IMG/VR virus record: IMGVR_UViG_3300035703_000141
Span: 1 to 47,615 of that record
From: a virus
DNA: 47,615 nt
Reading direction: 5' to 3' (one strand)
A model generated the notes under the pieces. That model worked only from the letters and a program-made list of their open reading frames with translations, was not told where the DNA came from and searched no databases. Positions 12,655-38,632 of this stretch are shown piece after piece. The translations under genes were made by a program, and so were the position numbers. Every line of letters starts with the position of its first letter. The stretch's first letter is position 1.

Positions 12655-13506
12655 TTAAAGCCCGCACATTCCCTCGCACTCGTTCTGGAAAAAGTCCATC
12701 TGGCCCCGCTGGGCGTCGGTGGCAAAGTCCACTTGATCGAGAGGACGCAGCGACCCGTGAAGAAACGGCACGCCGTTCAGATTGTCTGACTTGCGCTTTA
12801 CCTCTTGGAGATTGCGCTCGAACTCCACGGCGCGCCGAAACTCATCTGGCTCCTCTGACTTTAGCCGCCTCCACTCATTGTCGGAATGAAACGGGCAGAA
12901 TACGCAGGCTGAACGAGGCGGCTTTGGAAAGCCCATCTTTTCCATCCAGCGAAGGCAATCGTGCCGCGTCATCTCAGCCTCGATCAAGGGCCATCGATTG
13001 ATTGCCCATTTCTCGCGACTGGGCTTCATCCGCGTTACCTCATCGAGGGAGATTCCTATCCACGTTACAACCCGAGGCTCCTTGCATCCTCTCGGCACGT
13101 TGCCGATCTGCTTTTGTTTCTTGAGTAGTGGCGCAATCTTTTTGTCGGCCGTGCACAACCGGCCCATAATGCCACGAGTTCCATCTGGGTTCGCCACGTA
13201 TGCGGGGACTAAGCTTTTGCTCCACGGCTTGCCCTCTGTCCGAACTCGTGCGCGTAACGTCAAGGACTCCTCAATCAATCCGAGCTTGTCCTGCACGCGG
13301 TACACAGGGAACGGGAGCTTTGTCTCGAGCCAATCCAGCCACTTGTAAACGGACGCAGGCTCGGCTTTGGTGTCGGAAAAGATCGCGGCTTTTGGCATAG
13401 GCAGCAATTCTCCAGCCGCAGCCATCAATGCCATTGTGCTGCTTTGCACTCCGGCTCCTAAGCTCAAGACGTGAACTAGGTTGTCGTGATTCTGAGTCGT
13501 TGTCAT
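12655..13506 (-). CDS. PP-loop (PAPS reductase/adenine nucleotide alpha hydrolase-like) protein
   Basis: A 283-residue protein. Residues ~12-28 hold a PP-loop-like nucleotide site ('VLSLGAGVQSSTMALM') followed by 'AIFSDTKAEPASVYKWLDWL', as in PAPS reductases and related phage enzymes. 'PRSACVFCPFHSDNEWRRL' near residue 200 has paired Cys (C-x-x-C) plus His, and the C-terminus 'CEGMCGL' adds two more Cys, so a metal or Fe-S site is likely. Members activate a substrate by adenylation, often to transfer sulfur. Substrate here is unknown. It lies between the large terminase and gpW, where lambda has no such gene. Confidence 0.75.
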   Translation of the reverse strand: MTTTQNHDNLVHVLSLGAGVQSSTMALMAAAGELLPMPKAAIFSDTKAEPASVYKWLDWLETKLPFPVYRVQDKLGLIEESLTLRARVRTEGKPWSKSLVPAYVANPDGTRGIMGRLCTADKKIAPLLKKQKQIGNVPRGCKEPRVVTWIGISLDEVTRMKPSREKWAINRWPLIEAEMTRHDCLRWMEKMGFPKPPRSACVFCPFHSDNEWRRLKSEEPDEFRRAVEFERNLQEVKRKSDNLNGVPFLHGSLRPLDQVDFATDAQRGQMDFFQNECEGMCGL

Positions 13507-30382: not shown

Positions 30383-31870
30383 TTAGGCGAAGGCTGCGCG
30401 GTAGGCGCCACCGCGGCGCACCATATCTGGGATCTCGGCCTTGAGTCGCTTGCGCTCGGCCTCGAGGATCGGCACGAGCTCGCCCCGCGTAACGCCCGCG
30501 GCGATGTTGTAGTTGACCGTGACGCTCGTGCCAGATGATCCGGCCATCGAGGCAGAGGCTCCCTTATTGGCGATGATATCGCCCGACGATTTGGGAACAA
30601 AGATCTCAGGCCCCTCCTCACCAACGATGTAGGCAGAACCCATCGAGACCGGCCCGCCCTTGGCTCGAGTCCCTGCGATTGTCGGCAAGAGACTGAAGCC
30701 AGAGATGCCACCGAAGATTGAATTGATGAGAGGATTGGTCACTGCGAGGCGCGTAAAGACTCGTAGAATATCCTGCGCCAAACTACGCATCACATCCGAG
30801 AATTTCTGGCCGGAGATGATTGCATCCTCAAAAGCGGACGAGAACGAGAAACCAAGGTCGTCTGCCGCCTGCGCCATCACGCTGGTTTCGGTTTTGATCT
30901 TGTCCATCTCGCCGAAGAACTCGTCAAGAGATGTTTCGATCCTTTGCTTCTGAGTCGCGGTTCGATTGCGGAAGATCTGATCTCGCGCCCGAGAAGCATC
31001 CGCCACAGTCAAAGCACCTTCGCGCTCTAGTTTGTTAACCTCCTCAAGTTGCTGCGCGTAAATCCGAAGCGGGTCGCCCAGCTTGCGGTATGCCTCCGCT
31101 TGCGCCTCCACCTTTTCCTTCGCAGCGTTTGCGCGCTCGCGCGCCTGCTCCGTCTCGTCGTTGGCCTTTTTCTGCGCGGCAACGAGCCTATTGAACGCGG
31201 CTTCCTGCGCTTCTAGCCCCTTGGTGTAAGCGCCGATCTTGCGAGTCTGGTCGCTGATTCGCTCGGATTCTCGAAGATCTAGCGCCCTCTGCTCCGAACT
31301 TTGATTCAGCTTGTCGATCTGAAGTCGAAGTTCTTGGTACTTTGTGTTAAGTTCGGCGACGCGACGCGCCTCCTCTGCCGTGAGGTCCGCAATCTTCGGC
31401 GCGATTGCGGCTCGATTTTCCTCCGCACTTCTAAACGCCGAGCCCGGCTTTTGAATTGGTGTGAATGTCCGTCGCCGCACGTCGAGAATCTTTTCTCGCT
31501 CGGCCTCAATCTCTGCCATCTGACGCTTCAAGTCTCGAAGCTGAACTTGAGTCTGTTGCTCTGGCGTCTGCCGCAATGCGAAGATCTGCTTGAGCAGCGA
31601 AAGCTGCTTCTCCTGCTCCTTGTTGATAAACTCCGCGGTCTCCAACTCCTCCTTCCGCTGCTGGTTTATTCCCTCAAAGGTGCTCTGAATGATCTGAAAC
31701 CCGCTGCCGATTCCAAAGCCGCGAACCAAATCCTTGAAGACATTCCCGATTCGGAAGCCCTTGCCGATGCTGCGAACGTCGTTGTCGATGCGCTGAAGCG
31801 AGTTCTCAACGCTCGCAAACGCGGCCTTCGTCTCATCGACCGCGCGCAGGGTAAAAGTCGCTGTTGCCAT
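30383..31870 (-). CDS. tail tape measure protein
   Basis: A 495-residue protein, mostly helical with long coiled coils (~60-320, many Glu/Gln/Arg). The C-terminal part has 'FEDAIISGQKFSDVMRSLAQ', 'AVTNPLINSIFGG' and 'GSAYIVGEEGPEIFVPKSSG', characteristic of lambda-type tape measures. It sets tail length; at ~1.5 angstroms per residue, a tail near 75 nm is expected. GC content is visibly lower than in neighbours. It follows the chaperone frameshift pair. Confidence 0.92.
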   Translation of the reverse strand: MATATFTLRAVDETKAAFASVENSLQRIDNDVRSIGKGFRIGNVFKDLVRGFGIGSGFQIIQSTFEGINQQRKEELETAEFINKEQEKQLSLLKQIFALRQTPEQQTQVQLRDLKRQMAEIEAEREKILDVRRRTFTPIQKPGSAFRSAEENRAAIAPKIADLTAEEARRVAELNTKYQELRLQIDKLNQSSEQRALDLRESERISDQTRKIGAYTKGLEAQEAAFNRLVAAQKKANDETEQARERANAAKEKVEAQAEAYRKLGDPLRIYAQQLEEVNKLEREGALTVADASRARDQIFRNRTATQKQRIETSLDEFFGEMDKIKTETSVMAQAADDLGFSFSSAFEDAIISGQKFSDVMRSLAQDILRVFTRLAVTNPLINSIFGGISGFSLLPTIAGTRAKGGPVSMGSAYIVGEEGPEIFVPKSSGDIIANKGASASMAGSSGTSVTVNYNIAAGVTRGELVPILEAERKRLKAEIPDMVRRGGAYRAAFA

Positions 31871-31871
31871 A

Positions 31872-32021
31872 TTAGGAGCTTACGCGGTTTTTGTGGTGGA
31901 AGTATGCGACCCAGCCCTGCATCTCGGAGATCGGCATCTCAAGAATCTCGTGAGCGAACTTGCCGAGCTTTTCCGCGAGAGCGTAAACGGCGAGGATGTC
32001 GGCGGCATCCCCGCCGTGCAT
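31872..32021 (-). CDS. tail assembly chaperone, frameshift-added C-terminal part (gpT-like)
   Basis: A 49-codon frame from ATG 32021 (MHGGDAADILAVYALAEKLG), stop TAA at 31872. It is in the -1 frame relative to the upstream chaperone and is reached by slippage on A-AAA-AAC at 32024-32030, which would give ...DELKN-LMHGGDAAD... The sequence 'AHEILEMPISEMQGWVAYFH' resembles gpT-like extensions in other siphophages. In lambda, only the fusion binds tape measure and tail tube. Independent initiation at the ATG cannot be excluded. Confidence 0.8.
   Translation of the reverse strand: MHGGDAADILAVYALAEKLGKFAHEILEMPISEMQGWVAYFHHKNRVSS
32000..32016 (-). promoter_or_regulatory. frameshift-stimulating hairpin
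   Basis: Seven bases after the slippery heptamer, CGGCGG-GGATG-CCGCCG forms a perfect 6-bp GC stem with a 5-base loop, the spacing expected for a -1 frameshift stimulator. Confidence 0.75.
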
Positions 32022-32344
32022 TAGTTTTTTAGCTCGTCGGCCTTGGGCGCCTCGTCAGCGAGGATCGCATTGGAGACGCGCGCGACCACGTTCGAGTCGG
32101 CCTTGTTGAGCAGCGTCGGCTTGTGCTCGAGCGTGAAGAGCTTCTGGCCGTTCGCGTCGGTGGCCTTCATAATCAGAAGGTCAACGAGTAACTCCATATC
32201 GCTCTCCTTGCTCTTCTTGTAGAGCCGGTTCTTCTCGGCGAGCGTGACGGGCGCGGCGTAGATGGTCAGCTTCCACTCGGGCACCTCGATCTTTCGGGTG
32301 CCGAGGGAGGCGAAGTGCTCACGAACTAGGTCGATTGGGTCCAT
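32021..32344 (-). CDS. tail assembly chaperone (gpG-like)
   Basis: A 107-residue protein (MDPIDLVREHFASLGTRKIE) with 'PEWKLTIYAAPVTLAEKNRL' and 'MELLVDLLIMKATDANGQKL', the pattern of phage tail assembly chaperones. It lies between tail tube and tape measure genes, as gpG does in lambda. Its last codons are CTA AAA AAC TAA, giving an in-phase slippery heptamer. The short form ends in ADELKN. Confidence 0.88.
   Translation of the reverse strand: MDPIDLVREHFASLGTRKIEVPEWKLTIYAAPVTLAEKNRLYKKSKESDMELLVDLLIMKATDANGQKLFTLEHKPTLLNKADSNVVARVSNAILADEAPKADELKN
32024..32030 (-). promoter_or_regulatory. -1 ribosomal frameshift slippery site A-AAA-AAC
   Basis: On the minus strand the bases are A AAA AAC, read in phase as CTA AAA AAC TAA. 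After a -1 slip, reading continues CTA ATG CAC, in frame with the 49-codon extension. This is the X-XXY-YYZ class of slippery heptamer. Confidence 0.85.
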
Positions 32345-32352
32345 TTAGCACC

Positions 32353-32739
32353 TCAAACCGTCAAAGTGCTAAGTACGCCGTTGCCCTCGATGGTGATCGA
32401 GCCCTCGACCATCCCGTCGAACGCGGCGCTGATGTCGAACTTGGTCACGATGCCGGAGCCCGAGTAATAGGTCGAGGTCGCGGCGATGCCTTCGGGGTAC
32501 AGGTTAACGGTCACCGAGGCGCCGATGGTCAGCGCGATCTGCCCGGCATCAAGCTCATCCCAGTAGAGGTCGCCATTGACGGACCACGTCTTGAGCGTGC
32601 CCTTGCGAGTGCGGTACGTGTCGCCGATCACCGAGTCCTCGACAACGTCGGAGGAGTGGGCGAGCGCGTAGTTGCGGAGCTCCCCGATGGTAGTTGAGGA
32701 GATTTTGACGGTGCCTTCGCGGCCTAGATGGTTAGCCAT
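32353..32739 (-). CDS. tail tube protein paralogue 2 (128 aa)
   Basis: MANHLGREGTVKISSTTIGE... with 'YALAHSSDVVEDSVIGDTYR', 'LYWDELDAGQIALTIGASVT' and the C-terminal 'FDGMVEGSITIEGNGVLS'. This is the single-domain tail tube fold in which a beta sandwich stacks as rings along the tail. It is about two thirds identical to the adjacent protein at 32765-33154, and the two evidently arose by tandem duplication. It lies before the tail assembly chaperone. Confidence 0.8.
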   Translation of the reverse strand: MANHLGREGTVKISSTTIGELRNYALAHSSDVVEDSVIGDTYRTRKGTLKTWSVNGDLYWDELDAGQIALTIGASVTVNLYPEGIAATSTYYSGSGIVTKFDISAAFDGMVEGSITIEGNGVLSTLTV

Positions 32740-32764: not shown

Positions 32765-33154
32765 TCAGACGGTAAGTGTGGACAAGATCCCGTTGCCTTC
32801 GACAGTGATTGAACCTTCGACCATCCCGTCGAAAGTGCCCGAGATGTCGTATTTAGTAACGACGCCGAGGCCGCCATAAAGGATGGCGCTAGATGCAATT
32901 CCTTCGGGATACAAGTCGATGAAAACCCCGGCTCCGGGTGTCAGCCGAACCTGCCCAACATCCGCCTCGTCCCAGTAAACATCCGCGCTCATCGTCCAAG
33001 TTTCGAGCGTCGCCTTTTTCGTGCGATACTCGTCATTGAGCGTCGAGTCCTCGACGACATCCGAACTGTAGGCTAAGGAGTAGTTTCTGAGCTCTCCGAC
33101 CACGCGACTGATCGCGACTTTAAGGATTCCTTCTCGTCCGAGATGAGTCGCCAT
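32765..33154 (-). CDS. tail tube protein paralogue 1 (129 aa)
   Basis: MATHLGREGILKVAISRVVG... with 'YSLAYSSDVVEDSTLNDEYR' and the same end motif 'FDGMVEGSITVEGNGILS' as its neighbour. Position corresponds to lambda gpV. The conserved parts are the ends and the 'SSDVVEDS' region; the middle strands differ. Both copies appear intact, so both may build the tube, or one may form a specialised ring. Confidence 0.8.
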   Translation of the reverse strand: MATHLGREGILKVAISRVVGELRNYSLAYSSDVVEDSTLNDEYRTKKATLETWTMSADVYWDEADVGQVRLTPGAGVFIDLYPEGIASSAILYGGLGVVTKYDISGTFDGMVEGSITVEGNGILSTLTV

Positions 33155-33155
33155 T

Positions 33156-33587
33156 TTAGTCGGTTGTTAGATAGATGCAGTTGAAATTATGCCGAGCCGT
33201 TCCCCAGCGAAGGTTCTCGTCCGGCTCGATCACATAATCCACGCTCGTCAAATGCAAATCACGACAGACGCCGCCAAGGGTTACGTCTGACAAAACGGCC
33301 GCTTCGACGGCAGCGGACCCGGTATCAAAGAGATCGTCGATGAGCGTCGTCGAGGTCTGCGCGGTGAAGTACTCGACCACGACTTGAAGCACGCGGTACT
33401 GGTCGCGATTCGACGGCGCCAGCGTGCGGACCTCGACATCCTCGTGCACCGCGTACACGGCGCAGGACGGGAACGAGACCGAGGCGAGGGTATTGTTGCG
33501 ACCCTTGAGGATGTTCGCGGTCGGCACCACGCCCTGAGTGGTGAGCGCGTTGGCGATGGCGTTGCGGATGCTGGTTCTCGTACTCAT
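33156..33587 (-). CDS. tail terminator-like protein (gpU position)
   Basis: A 143-residue protein (MSTRTSIRNAIANALTTQGV) with 'SFPSCAVYAVHEDVEVRTLA' and 'YRVLQVVVEYFTAQTSTTLI', an alpha/beta pattern compatible with tail terminators such as gpU. It sits between the gpZ-position gene and the tail tube genes. Such proteins cap the finished tail and contact the head connector. Confidence 0.7.
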   Translation of the reverse strand: MSTRTSIRNAIANALTTQGVVPTANILKGRNNTLASVSFPSCAVYAVHEDVEVRTLAPSNRDQYRVLQVVVEYFTAQTSTTLIDDLFDTGSAAVEAAVLSDVTLGGVCRDLHLTSVDYVIEPDENLRWGTARHNFNCIYLTTD

Positions 33588-34474
33588 TGTGGCATATTCT
33601 CCTGCACGCGGCCCGCTCCATTGATGCGCGCGAATCCAAGGTTGACGGCGCGGTTGGCGAGGATGGCGTCGACTTTCTTCAGAGTGATCTTCGCTCGGAA
33701 CTCCAGCGCATCATTTACGTAGCGATCAGGGTTTGGCACCTTGATGTTGGTCGCCGTGCCGGTCAGAAACGGTTTATCGCTGGTGAAGTTGTGCGACTCG
33801 ACGCCGGCACGCGCCGCGTGACGACGGACCCAAGCTGGCACGCGCTGTCCGGTCGCGAGAGCCGCTGCGGCAAATCCAGCCTTGGCCCAGCCAACCTTCG
33901 ACTGGACGGAGTTGAGATAACGATCGGCGGATGCATCGCTGATCCACATCTGATTCTGAACCTGCCAGCGGCCGATCGGATTCCGGTCAACGTAGCCGAT
34001 GCGTCCGTAGCGGTCGCGATACTTCAGATGGAAGTTCCGCATCGTCGATACCGATGCGTTCTGGTTCCAGAACTTCCAGTAGATGCGAATCGTCTTGGAT
34101 GTCTCCCACCCCAGACGCACGTTAACGGTTTCGGTCCGCGCTCTTTTGGGCGGCGTTACCTTTGAACTTCCGATCCGCTGGAAGATGCCGAGCGTCGTAA
34201 TCTGCTTTTTTATGGTCCGCGTCCTTCCGCCGAAGAGATCCGATTTGATTGCGTATTCGCCCTGCTCCTTTGCAGCCGTCGTCAGGCCGGATCTCACCGG
34301 CTTTTTGCTCTTCCGGTGCTCGTGTTGTCCGGTCGGCGGCAGAATCATCATTATCGACCGCGCCACGTTGCCGCCCTCCTGCTTGATGACCTTGCCTAGA
34401 TCAACGCGCGCGGCCGACGCCAAACGCTGCAAGGCGTAGTCGAGCTTCGCCGAGTTGAGCGTCACGGCGATCAT
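33584..34474 (-). CDS. minor tail/neck protein (gpZ position, 296 aa)
   Basis: Starts MIAVTLNSAKLDYALQRLAS and is basic in the middle ('MILPPTGQHEHRKSKKPVRS', 'KVTPPKRARTETVNVRLGWE'). It lies at the position of lambda gpZ, which activates tails for head joining. The sequence has an HK97-gp10-like N-terminal helix and a beta-rich middle, but the family is not certain. ATGA overlaps link it to both neighbours. Confidence 0.65.
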   Translation of the reverse strand: MIAVTLNSAKLDYALQRLASAARVDLGKVIKQEGGNVARSIMMILPPTGQHEHRKSKKPVRSGLTTAAKEQGEYAIKSDLFGGRTRTIKKQITTLGIFQRIGSSKVTPPKRARTETVNVRLGWETSKTIRIYWKFWNQNASVSTMRNFHLKYRDRYGRIGYVDRNPIGRWQVQNQMWISDASADRYLNSVQSKVGWAKAGFAAAALATGQRVPAWVRRHAARAGVESHNFTSDKPFLTGTATNIKVPNPDRYVNDALEFRAKITLKKVDAILANRAVNLGFARINGAGRVQENMPQ

Positions 34475-36284: not shown

Positions 36285-36920
36285 TCAGCGTCTGAAAACC
36301 ATCGTTAGGATATTCGGCCCCTGCGCGTCCGGCTCCGGCTTGCGGACGGCGTCCTCGGGGTTTCCGACGTAGACGGCCCGCATCCCGGCGCGGTGGAATA
36401 GTCGAGCCAGCGCCTCCGGAGTGAAGTGCCACAGATGCTCTCCCGGCCTGCGGTGCTTCCAGCGAGCGAACCACTCCGGCCCGAGGTACGGATGATACCA
36501 CGGGAGCGAGACGACGACGGTCTGCGCGCGCAATAGCTTGATGCACGTTAGGTCGTCGAAGTGCTCGAGGCTGTCGAAGAACGTGACCGCATCCCACTCG
36601 CTCGTGAACCAGCCCGGCGTGACTTTTCGGATGAAGTCAGGCAGCGGGTACGGCGAGACATCGTGACCGTAGAGCTTGGCGTTCGGCTGCATCGCCCGCA
36701 TCGCCTCAAGGAACGCGCCAGTTCCGCAGCCCACGTCGAGCACGCTGCTCGCCTCCGGAGCCCAGCGGTTGACCAGTTCAGCGCGGATGCGCGATAGCTC
36801 GGCCTGCGGGTACTTCTCGTACCGCGCCACGTAGGCGTGATCGTAGACGGCCGTGATGCGGCGATCCGCGGCGCAGAGCGCGCCCGTGTCCCAGTCTAGG
36901 TGATAGCCTTCGGGAATCAT
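36285..36920 (-). CDS. SAM-dependent methyltransferase
   Basis: A 211-residue class I methyltransferase. 'SSVLDVGCGTGAFLEAMRAM' near residue 58 is the SAM-binding motif, with 'YGHDVSPYPLPDFI', 'WDAVTFFDSLEHFDD' and 'HLWHFTPEALARLFHRAGM' typical of the UbiE/Methyltransf_23 group. In a glycosyltransferase island it most likely methylates a sugar, though a small molecule or protein target cannot be excluded. ATGA overlap with the upstream gene. Confidence 0.85.
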   Translation of the reverse strand: MIPEGYHLDWDTGALCAADRRITAVYDHAYVARYEKYPQAELSRIRAELVNRWAPEASSVLDVGCGTGAFLEAMRAMQPNAKLYGHDVSPYPLPDFIRKVTPGWFTSEWDAVTFFDSLEHFDDLTCIKLLRAQTVVVSLPWYHPYLGPEWFARWKHRRPGEHLWHFTPEALARLFHRAGMRAVYVGNPEDAVRKPEPDAQGPNILTMVFRR

Positions 36921-38632
36921 TGCGCGTCAGGGTTGCGGGTTTTGAAGATCGCCTCGCCTGCGATGTAACGGTCGCGCGAGTTGTTGTGCGCGTAGGTCGC
37001 GTCCATCTGCGCCTTGCCGAAGGCCGGGTGCTGGTGCTCGAAGCGGAAGCGGTCGCGCGCGTCGATCACAATGCCGTCGCGCCACGCTCGGTGCGAAAAC
37101 TCGTTGTCGGAGAAGACAGACTCGTAGCCCTCGAAGAACAGATCGCCCTGCGCCTCGAGGCGGGCGCGGGAGAGAATCGCCATACACAGCAGCTTGTCCG
37201 TCCGGTGGCCGTCCGAGACGGCAAGGACGATCTGCTCCTTTTGGAGGTCGCGGCCCTCGACGAGCGAAAGGAGCTTCGCGTCCCATCCCGGCGGCGGAAT
37301 CCAGTCGTCCGAGACTTGCACCAGCAGATCGCCGCGCGCCTTCTTTGCGGCCAGATTCCACGCGGCCACGCACGAACGCTTGTCCGAGGTGACGGAGACG
37401 AACTGTCGCGCCATCTGCACGCTCTCCTTGTCGTCCGCATCGACGGCAAAGATGTGCTCCACGCGCTCAGGACGTTCGGCCAGCTGGAGCCAGACTTCGC
37501 GTGCGTTGACGGCCTTTGAGGTCCGGCCGCGGGTGGCGTGCAGAAGCGAGATGCGAGGCACTTCGCCTTGATGGAACTGCGATTGAAGGATGTTCGCCCG
37601 CGCCTCGTAGCCATCGAGGCGGAACGCACGCGCGGCCAGATCGTAGCCCGCCCAGCCGTAGTACTTCGCCTCCGTCGTCCACGGCCGGTCGGCGCCGATG
37701 GGCTCGCGCAGGCGCAGCATCTCCTCGGCCCACCAGCGGGCGCGGCGCCCGTCGTTCTTCTCGAAGGTGAGCAGGATGATGGCGGCGTAAGCCTCGCGGC
37801 ACCACGGGAAGACTGCGTGCGCTTGCAGCGCGTAGCCCATCGCCTCGCGGTGGTCGCCGCACAGCTTCGCGAGATTGAGCAGCGCCTCGTACCGGAAAGA
37901 TGCCTCGAGGTTCGGGAACGAAATCGCGATCTTGCCGAACTGCTCCGCGGCCTGCCGATTGCCCGAGCAGACGTGCTCCTGATGGATGTAGAAGTATTGC
38001 GTGGGCGTCTCCTTCACCGAGTGCCCGAGGATGCGGAGGTTCCGGCGGCGGTTCTCCTTCTTGATCGACTTCGGTTGATGAACCCAGACCGGCGTTGCGT
38101 GGTCTTCGTGCTTGTCGCCCGCAAGCAGCAGGAGGTTTTCGTGGACGTCGTGATGCCAGCGGCGCCCGGCGCGGAAGGCCGAGGCGCGGATCGCCCGCTC
38201 GCGGTGCAGCTTCTTGTTGGTCCCGCGGACGTCGTACGGGCAACGGATCATCGACACGCCGTCCGGCAGCGCGGCCAGCGTCGCGCGGAAGGCGGCGGCG
38301 GCGGCCTCGCTCGCGTCCTCGATCACGTCGTCGCAGTCGGCCCAGATCAGCCACTCGCCGCTGCCGAGCTTAAAGGCGGCGTTGCGTGCGTTCGCGAAGG
38401 AGTCGACGTGGTCCCATCGCTCGGCGCCCGGCCCGTTCTGATAGTCGGTCCAGAGCATCACCTTGCCGTTCTCTCGGCACCACGCGGTCGCAAGCTCGAT
38501 GGTCGCGTCCGGCTCCTTGGCCCCGATGGCGCGGACGAGCGCGAACTCGTCGAAGAAGTGCTTAAACGAGGAGAGCATCGAGACGATGTGCTCGGCCTCG
38601 TTGCCTGCGATGACGCAAAGGGAGATCCGCAT
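36917..38632 (-). CDS. bifunctional GT2-type glycosyltransferase with TPR-like middle
   Basis: A 571-residue protein with two GT-A-like parts. The first ('MRISLCVIAGNEAEHIVSML', 'GEWLIWADCDDVIEDA' with D-C-D-D) spans residues 1-~210. A helical repeat region follows (~215-335, 'NLAKLCGDHREAMGYALQAH'). The second GT ('RISLLHATRGRTSKAVNARE', 'IFAVDADDKESVQMAR', 'LVQVSDDWIPPPGWDAKL') fills ~340-571. It may build a two-sugar chain. The start follows ATTTGACG by 14 bases. Confidence 0.82.
   Translation of the reverse strand: MRISLCVIAGNEAEHIVSMLSSFKHFFDEFALVRAIGAKEPDATIELATAWCRENGKVMLWTDYQNGPGAERWDHVDSFANARNAAFKLGSGEWLIWADCDDVIEDASEAAAAAFRATLAALPDGVSMIRCPYDVRGTNKKLHRERAIRASAFRAGRRWHHDVHENLLLLAGDKHEDHATPVWVHQPKSIKKENRRRNLRILGHSVKETPTQYFYIHQEHVCSGNRQAAEQFGKIAISFPNLEASFRYEALLNLAKLCGDHREAMGYALQAHAVFPWCREAYAAIILLTFEKNDGRRARWWAEEMLRLREPIGADRPWTTEAKYYGWAGYDLAARAFRLDGYEARANILQSQFHQGEVPRISLLHATRGRTSKAVNAREVWLQLAERPERVEHIFAVDADDKESVQMARQFVSVTSDKRSCVAAWNLAAKKARGDLLVQVSDDWIPPPGWDAKLLSLVEGRDLQKEQIVLAVSDGHRTDKLLCMAILSRARLEAQGDLFFEGYESVFSDNEFSHRAWRDGIVIDARDRFRFEHQHPAFGKAQMDATYAHNNSRDRYIAGEAIFKTRNPDAQ

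What the first reader, a model, noticed from the sequence alone, without database searches (positions are those of the whole stretch)
32000..32344. Canonical -1 frameshift signal in the tail assembly chaperone pair
The upstream gene ends CTA AAA AAC TAA, so A-AAA-AAC is in phase. A -1 slip leads straight into the 49-codon downstream frame (CTA ATG CAC). After a 7-base spacer comes a 6-bp GC hairpin. Position before the tape measure matches lambda G/GT. The downstream ATG lying in the same frame could allow independent expression too.
Basis: partly seen in the sequence, partly recalled or inferred. Interest (0 to 1): 0.7.

Follow-up and report, generated by a model that had tools for sequence, protein, structure and literature searches.

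The report
Frameshift-made phage tail assembly chaperone
A phage gene for a tail-building helper protein ends in a slippery stretch that probably lets some ribosomes slip back one base and make a longer version, a well-known phage trick that comparison with many relatives supports here; some related phages seem to reach the same extra part by a shift into the other frame.

Summary
On the minus strand, gene G (32344-32021) ends CTA AAA AAC TAA. The -1 frame entered there encodes a 50-residue domain (T, to 31872) just before the tape measure gene. Of 81 window-type rows (80 viral contigs plus the window), 76 carry A_AAA_AAC and 5 G_GGA_AAC, always flush with the G stop. T evolves as protein in the -1 frame only (pN/pS 0.39 against 1.35 and 1.65). 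Two details change. The conserved downstream structure is a 12-bp stem 6 nt after the heptamer, not the 6-bp hairpin. The ATG that might allow separate expression occurs in only 3 of 81. G's predicted fold best matches the HK97 tail assembly chaperone. This is a new member of the lambda G/GT kind; expression was not measured. The unexpected part lies in relatives: in two sets of the same family (154 and 11 contigs) the T domain, or what is left of it in one, follows a TRAAAAG core in the +1 frame. The +1 rows tested are not one clade (p-AU 0.0064), so the recoding frame appears to have changed at least twice.

The parts
32021..32344 (-). gene G: tail assembly chaperone, 107 aa, zero frame, stop TAA at 32023-32021
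   Evidence: PHROG 344 'tail assembly chaperone' E 1.1e-9; AlphaFold2 model best matches HK97 chaperone 2ob9
32024..32030 (-). slippery heptamer A_AAA_AAC, in phase, flush with the stop codon
   Evidence: in 76 of 81 window-type rows, G_GGA_AAC in the other 5
31872..32024 (-). T domain in the -1 frame (LMHGGDAADILAVYALAEKLGKF...), 50 codons from the re-read C plus stop
   Evidence: C-terminal part of PHROG 16513 and 25875 tail assembly chaperone profiles, weak, E 0.0097 and 0.0048; pN/pS 0.39 in this frame
32006..32017 (-). 5' arm of the conserved 12-bp stem, 6 nt after the heptamer
31987..31998 (-). 3' arm of the conserved 12-bp stem
30383..31870 (-). tape measure protein gene, 495 aa
   Evidence: PHROG 10574 and 1538 tail length tape measure protein
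32353..32739 (-). major tail protein gene, just upstream of G
   Evidence: PHROG 1407 E 1.1e-12

Best explanation
Most ribosomes translating G stop at the TAA and make the 107-residue chaperone G. A minority slip back one base on A_AAA_AAC, helped by a 12-bp stem 6 nt downstream, read the 50-codon T frame and make a 157-residue GT fusion. By analogy with lambda (literature), G binds the tape measure protein and GT's T part recruits the major tail protein, so the slip fixes a G:GT ratio that tail assembly needs. Shown here: anatomy, conservation, coding in the -1 frame, chaperone fold by prediction. Inferred: that slippage occurs, its rate, that the stem stimulates it, and the roles of G and GT. 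A further inference is that the stop codon directly after the heptamer helps, because A_AAA_AAC shifts much less than A_AAA_AAG in E. coli (PMC5009743, passage).
For: In-phase heptamer flush with the G stop in 81 of 81 rows, 61 distinct; the stop codon itself varies (TAG 47, TGA 26, TAA 8). Replacement of CTA AAA AAC by CTG GGA AAC in 5 rows changes three bases and stays slippery. Lys is AAA in 57 of 57 distinct sequences that have Lys there, while AAA is 23% of Lys codons in the same genes. T pN/pS 0.39 in the -1 frame, 1.35 and 1.65 in the other two, 47 distinct sequences. No start codon before T codon 12 in 78 of 81 rows, three of which are cut short by the contig end. 12-bp stem: 91.9% of cells paired in 33 distinct rows, 3 pairs with changes on both sides, slid controls 42-72%. 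In-phase A_AAA_AAC at or within 12 nt of the stop in two further groups: 79 of 79 and 80 of 80 readable loci; in-phase heptamer with T in the -1 frame in 12 of 15 named phage records.
Against: No expression data. A_AAA_AAC is a weak motif in E. coli; the host is unknown. A strong downstream stem is found only in the window-type group: the consensus energy is -2.4 in one sister group (though 0 of 60 column shuffles were as low) and 0 in another. Inner pairs of the stem fail in 11 and 19 of 33 rows, and in one of seven sequences folded singly the fold is unremarkable (L077, 15 of 200 shuffles as low). The stem lies in T-coding sequence, so part of its conservation may be protein constraint, and shuffles overstate covariation among related rows. 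T alone matches chaperone profiles only weakly (E 0.0048 and 0.0097). In the CRP-823-type group 25 of 80 loci do have a possible start codon before T codon 12.
Confidence: 0.93

Rival explanations
1. T is made as a separate 49-residue protein by ribosomes that stop at TAA and restart at the overlapping ATG (TAATG).
For: TAATG overlap exists in the window and an ATG at the same place in L001 and L008. In the CRP-823-type group 25 of 80 loci have an ATG or TTG before T codon 12.
Against: 78 of 81 window-type rows have no ATG, GTG or TTG in that frame before T codon 12, counted from the upstream stop; the heptamer is kept in all 81.
Confidence: 0.04
2. RNA polymerase slips on the A run and makes mixed mRNAs, so T is reached by transcriptional slippage.
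For: Six A in a row in the window; a longer A run in HTVC202P and HTVC026P.
Against: Five window-type rows have GGGAAAC, with no run over three in the heptamer, and keep T in the -1 frame. Six A is short for slippage (recalled, not from a call).
Confidence: 0.03
3. The -1 open frame is a chance or relic frame and no fusion is made.
For: No expression data; AAAAAAC as a string is not over-represented in the window.
Against: Purifying selection in the -1 frame only and the same domain in the same place in distant groups.
Confidence: 0.02

Closest known systems
Phage lambda gpG/gpGT -1 frameshift (Levin 1993; Xu, Hendrix, Duda 2004 and 2013, known here only as cited in passages of the review PMC5009743)
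   Same: Two-part chaperone of tail assembly, upstream of the tape measure gene, T reached by a -1 slip near the end of G
   Different: Lambda heptamer is G_GGA_AAG (recalled); here A_AAA_AAC directly before the stop codon and a conserved 12-bp stem
Haloarchaeal tailed viruses HCTV-1, -2, -5 g-t frameshift (PMC5009743, passage)
   Different: Hosts are haloarchaea; no sequence relation tested
HK97 tail assembly chaperone (PDB 2ob9)
   Same: Best structural match of predicted G: Foldseek E 8.7e-4, VIA Z 9.6, rmsd 3.6 over 89 residues
   Different: 16-18% identity; no PDB sequence match for the G profile up to E 1
Pelagibacter, Roseobacter and cyanophage tail modules (HTVC202P, CRP-823, KBS-S-2A and others)
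   Same: Related G with in-phase heptamer and T in the -1 frame
   Different: No joined G-T gene in the stretches viewed of 14 annotated records

Membership tests
lambda-type G/GT tail assembly chaperone with -1 frameshift | G lies between major tail protein and tape measure genes | tested here: met
   PHROG matches of the neighbours
lambda-type G/GT tail assembly chaperone with -1 frameshift | canonical X_XXY_YYZ heptamer in phase near the end of G | tested here: met
lambda-type G/GT tail assembly chaperone with -1 frameshift | coding T frame at -1 without a start codon of its own | tested here: met
   coding; no start before T codon 12 in 78 of 81 rows, though the window itself has an ATG at T codon 2
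lambda-type G/GT tail assembly chaperone with -1 frameshift | G belongs to a tail assembly chaperone family or fold | tested here: met
   PHROG 344 E 1.1e-9; HK97 chaperone is top structural match; no Pfam match at E 0.1
lambda-type G/GT tail assembly chaperone with -1 frameshift | fusion protein made at a low set ratio and needed for tails | not testable with these tools
   needs proteomics or mutants
-1 frameshift stimulated by downstream stem | stable conserved stem 5-9 nt after the heptamer | tested here: met
   12-bp stem, spacer 6 nt, in the window-type group; no strong stem in two sister groups. The 5-9 nt range is recalled; stimulation was not tested

The most novel reading that the evidence does not exclude
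Within one homologous family of tail assembly chaperones the direction of recoding is not fixed. The window's -1 cassette (A_AAA_AAC before the stop) is replaced in at least two separate lineages by a cassette that opens the +1 frame: zero frame NTR AAA AGN, core TRAAAAG, with AAAA invariant, as expected if the Lys tRNA slips forward from AAA to AAA. In the larger lineage it is accompanied upstream by a Shine-Dalgarno-like AAGGAGGU and a 3-bp hairpin (GGC/GCC, replaced by AGC/GCT in 10 distinct rows), with strong synonymous constraint there. This would be a natural test of whether a phage needs only the G:GT ratio and not a given mechanism. A -2 slip or a short hop is not excluded.
Probability: 0.7. 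Interest if true: 0.6.

Novelty: new member of a known kind. Interest (0 to 1): 0.4.

Why it matters
For the window: it gives the likely complete product (GT) of a gene that ordinary gene calling would cut at the stop, and it adds a well-conserved A_AAA_AAC example in a phage, where work in E. coli would rank that heptamer as weak. In the wider family the T half is left blank or split in the 14 annotated phage records viewed. If the +1 lineages hold up, they offer a ready comparison of two recoding solutions to the same assembly need in related genes, and a +1 site with an upstream element to dissect.

Tried and rejected
Independent expression of T from its ATG as the general route: rejected for the window type, 3 of 81 rows. 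The 6-bp hairpin as the conserved structure: rejected, its innermost pair (columns 20/26) fails in 18 of 33 rows and no pair changes on both sides. Downstream stem in sister groups: consensus folding gave a weak one in the HTVC202P type (-2.4 kcal/mol, about 30 nt downstream, 0 of 60 column shuffles as low) and none in the CRP-823 type. Solved-structure search by sequence: none for G; for T only short stretches of designed toroids (best E 2.4e-9) and of a cell-wall-binding protein, each over 19 residues and none passing as a stretch of its own, taken as chance. Host by search in genome contigs: no relative. Near DNA relatives among phage records for window 25000-47615: none. Rfam at gathering scores and tRNA scan of the window: nothing. 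Sequencing error as cause of the +1 frame: unlikely, since 156 of 159 loci show at least 30 open +1 codons; of the other three, L296 and L446 are cut by the contig end and L420 has a +1 frame of only 19 codons with 1497 bases left, so its T looks broken or different.

Rows dropped: L119 (ORF runs off) and L332 (no match); L044 and L062 (too short) from the stem alignment; near-identical rows collapsed to 33 for the stem and 47 for pN/pS; L446 from the counts. The search for related loci kept the best 80 of 120, 399, 93, at least 584 and at least 569 relatives, so counts describe near relatives. Five loci (L377, L379, L399, L414, L433) lie on contigs already fetched, so the 159 loci are 154 contigs (and the listings).

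Papers: PMC5009743, passages and part 2 of section 9; PMC4066793, passages, abstract and section 17; PMC10885494, PMC8163748, PMC12629253, PMC6316719, passages only; the rest only as search listings. Searches, which would have listed papers on frameshifts in such chaperones, gave none whose title or abstract start told of a change of direction in this family; I did not read most listed papers.

Full report
What is there. The finding lies on the minus strand. Gene G (32344-32021, 107 aa) ends CTA AAA AAC TAA, and A_AAA_AAC is in phase and touches the stop codon. After a -1 slip the ribosome reads CTA ATG CAC and 50 codons in all, to a stop at 31874-31872. The tape measure gene begins at 31870. 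Upstream of G lie two major tail protein genes and a tail terminator. G matches the PHROG tail assembly chaperone family (E 1.1e-9). Both G and the -1 frame match one profile, phrog_16513, G at its positions 9-104 and T at 120-157 of 160 (E 6.1e-4 and 0.0097), as expected if they form one protein.

Is it more than chance? The bare string AAAAAAC is not unusual in the window (2 found, 2.85 expected). In phase, any X_XXY_YYZ occurs at 5 of 8728 positions of 24 ORFs that I chose, and only this one is at a gene end. The codons used are the rarer ones: Leu CTA or TTA 52 of 653, Lys AAA 52 of 321.

Relatives of the window type. A protein search of viral contigs kept 80 loci of 120 relatives. With the window's own record that makes 81 rows, 61 of them distinct at the end of G. 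All 81 have a canonical heptamer flush with the G stop: 76 A_AAA_AAC and 5 G_GGA_AAC. The stop codon differs (TAG 47, TGA 26, TAA 8). The G_GGA_AAC rows differ by three bases, CTA AAA against CTG GGA, and stay slippery. Among 61 distinct G sequences, Lys at that place is AAA in 57 of 57, while AAA is 23% of the Lys codons of these genes. The T frame shows pN/pS 0.39, the other two frames 1.35 and 1.65 (47 distinct sequences). Only 3 of 81 rows, the window among them, have a start codon before T codon 12, so a separate start cannot be the general route here. In the CRP-823-type group such a codon is commoner, 25 of 80.

The stem. Folding the window RNA gives a 12-bp stem, ACGGCGGGGAUG with CAUCCUCGCCGU, that begins 6 nt after the heptamer. 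On 33 distinct rows the 12-bp stem has 91.9% of cells paired and 3 pairs with changes on both sides (for example C-G to U-A); slid versions reach 42-72%. Its inner part is poor: columns 24/34 are unpaired in 19 of 33 rows and 23/35 in 11. Seven sequences folded singly had 0 to 15 of 200 shuffles as low. The 6-bp hairpin has 84.3% paired, no change on both sides, and its innermost pair fails in 18 of 33. Consensus folding of the alignment chose the long stem, with two of its inner pairs left open.

Fold of G. An AlphaFold2 model from 32 aligned sequences (mean pLDDT 78.7, pTM 0.68) has the HK97 tail assembly chaperone 2ob9 as its best solved match (Foldseek E 8.7e-4; VIA Z 9.6, rmsd 3.6 over 89 residues). 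Named chaperones also appear among predicted viral structures.

Wider family. Searches from HTVC202P and CRP-823 proteins gave groups with the same plan: 79 of 79 readable loci and 80 of 80 have in-phase A_AAA_AAC at or within 12 nt of the stop, with T under purifying selection in the -1 frame (pN/pS 0.38 and 0.25). Of 15 named phage records examined, 12 have an in-phase heptamer with T in the -1 frame (in S-2L it is C_CCA_AAG, 45 nt before the stop), two (P-HS2, MED4-117) have T in the -1 frame without one, and one (AG-345-A17) has T in the +1 frame. The stretches viewed of the 14 annotated records show no joined G-T gene; two list a short separate ORF in the T region.

The unexpected part. 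In AG-345-A17 relatives the +1 frame is open for 30 codons or more in 79 of 80 and 77 of 79 loci from two searches; these are 154 contigs. Of the three others two are cut by the contig end, and one, L420, has a +1 frame of only 19 codons. The +1 frame is under purifying selection (0.38 against 1.11 and 1.50, 128 distinct sequences). The zero frame reads TTR AAA AGN and then stops, at once or one or more codons later; the +1 frame opens exactly at AAA behind a TRA stop. The core is TRAAAAGC in 154 of 159 loci and TRAAAAG in 159; AAA is invariant in 112 of 112 distinct rows. Upstream codons are frozen at synonymous sites: Ala GCC 72 of 75 against 13% expected, Ser AGC 97% against 24%, Glu GAG at codon -8 in all 70 that have Glu against 25%. 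They spell an AAGGAGGU-like stretch and a GGC-loop-GCC hairpin, which becomes AGC-loop-GCT in 10 of 112 rows; 0 of 60 column-shuffled alignments folded as well, though the energy is small, -3.6. A second set, among KBS-S-2A relatives, has 11 of 38 loci with ATG AAA AGC and T in +1, while the other 27 have a flush heptamer and the -1 plan, two of these cut short in T. G and T of the window type and of the AG-345-A17 type are homologous (hhalign 95% for each, E 1.8e-8 and 2.7e-8). On a tree of 59 fusion proteins the frame label needs 3 changes; without 8 long or doubtful rows it needs 2, and a single +1 clade is rejected (p-AU 0.0064). The labels came from the reading frame, before the tree was built. 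Both trees warn of joins between long branches.

How it most likely works. For the window: standard -1 programmed frameshifting yielding G and GT, the ratio set by the heptamer and the stem, roles as in lambda (PMC5009743, passages). For the +1 groups: forward slip of the Lys tRNA from AAA to the overlapping AAA; this is inference from the invariant AAAA, and -2 or a hop is not excluded. SPP1's chaperone pair is described as a putative -1 (PMC6316719, passage) and phage Mu is listed for -2 (PMC5009743, passage), so variety between phages is known, and the same review notes that for a phage coat protein gene the direction differs between Listeria phages (A118 and A500 -1, PSA +1; passage). A change of direction among relatives of one tail assembly chaperone gene was not in the passages I read.

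Limits. No expression evidence exists here. The host of the window phage is unknown. Counts are for near relatives because searches keep the best 80. The stem overlaps coding sequence. The stop codon directly behind the heptamer is so constant (81 of 81, 80 of 80, 70 of 79) that it may matter, but I have no test of that.

Noticed in passing
L251-L330, L377-L455 (AG-345-A17-type contigs): T domain lies in the +1 frame behind TTR AAA AGN, with an upstream SD-like AAGGAGGU and a small covarying hairpin under strong synonymous constraint.
   Followed up: partly
L360, L361, L363-L367, L369, L370, L373, L374: KBS-S-2A-type relatives with ATG AAA AGC and T in the +1 frame, most of them nested among relatives that use A_AAA_AAC and -1.
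   Followed up: partly
L420: AG-345-A17-type locus with the TRAAAAG core but a +1 frame of only 19 codons; T broken or different.
   Followed up: no
L334 and L338 (P-HS2, MED4-117): T is in the -1 frame but no X_XXY_YYZ heptamer is present; the overlap reads GCA AAG GAA TCC TAA.
   Followed up: no
window 32353-32739 and 32765-33154: Two tandem major tail protein genes of similar sequence, both matching PHROG 1407.
   Followed up: no
L082-L089, L333-L338: Public phage records leave the T region without a joined gene in the stretches viewed; two call a short separate ORF there.
   Followed up: yes
window 33584-34474: An in-phase AAAAAAG lies 618 nt before the end of this gene.
   Followed up: no
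window 12655-13506: Phosphoadenosine phosphosulfate reductase gene (PHROG 424) between portal and terminase genes.
   Followed up: no
window 36917-38632: 571-aa protein with a glycosyltransferase family 2 domain inside the structural module.
   Followed up: no
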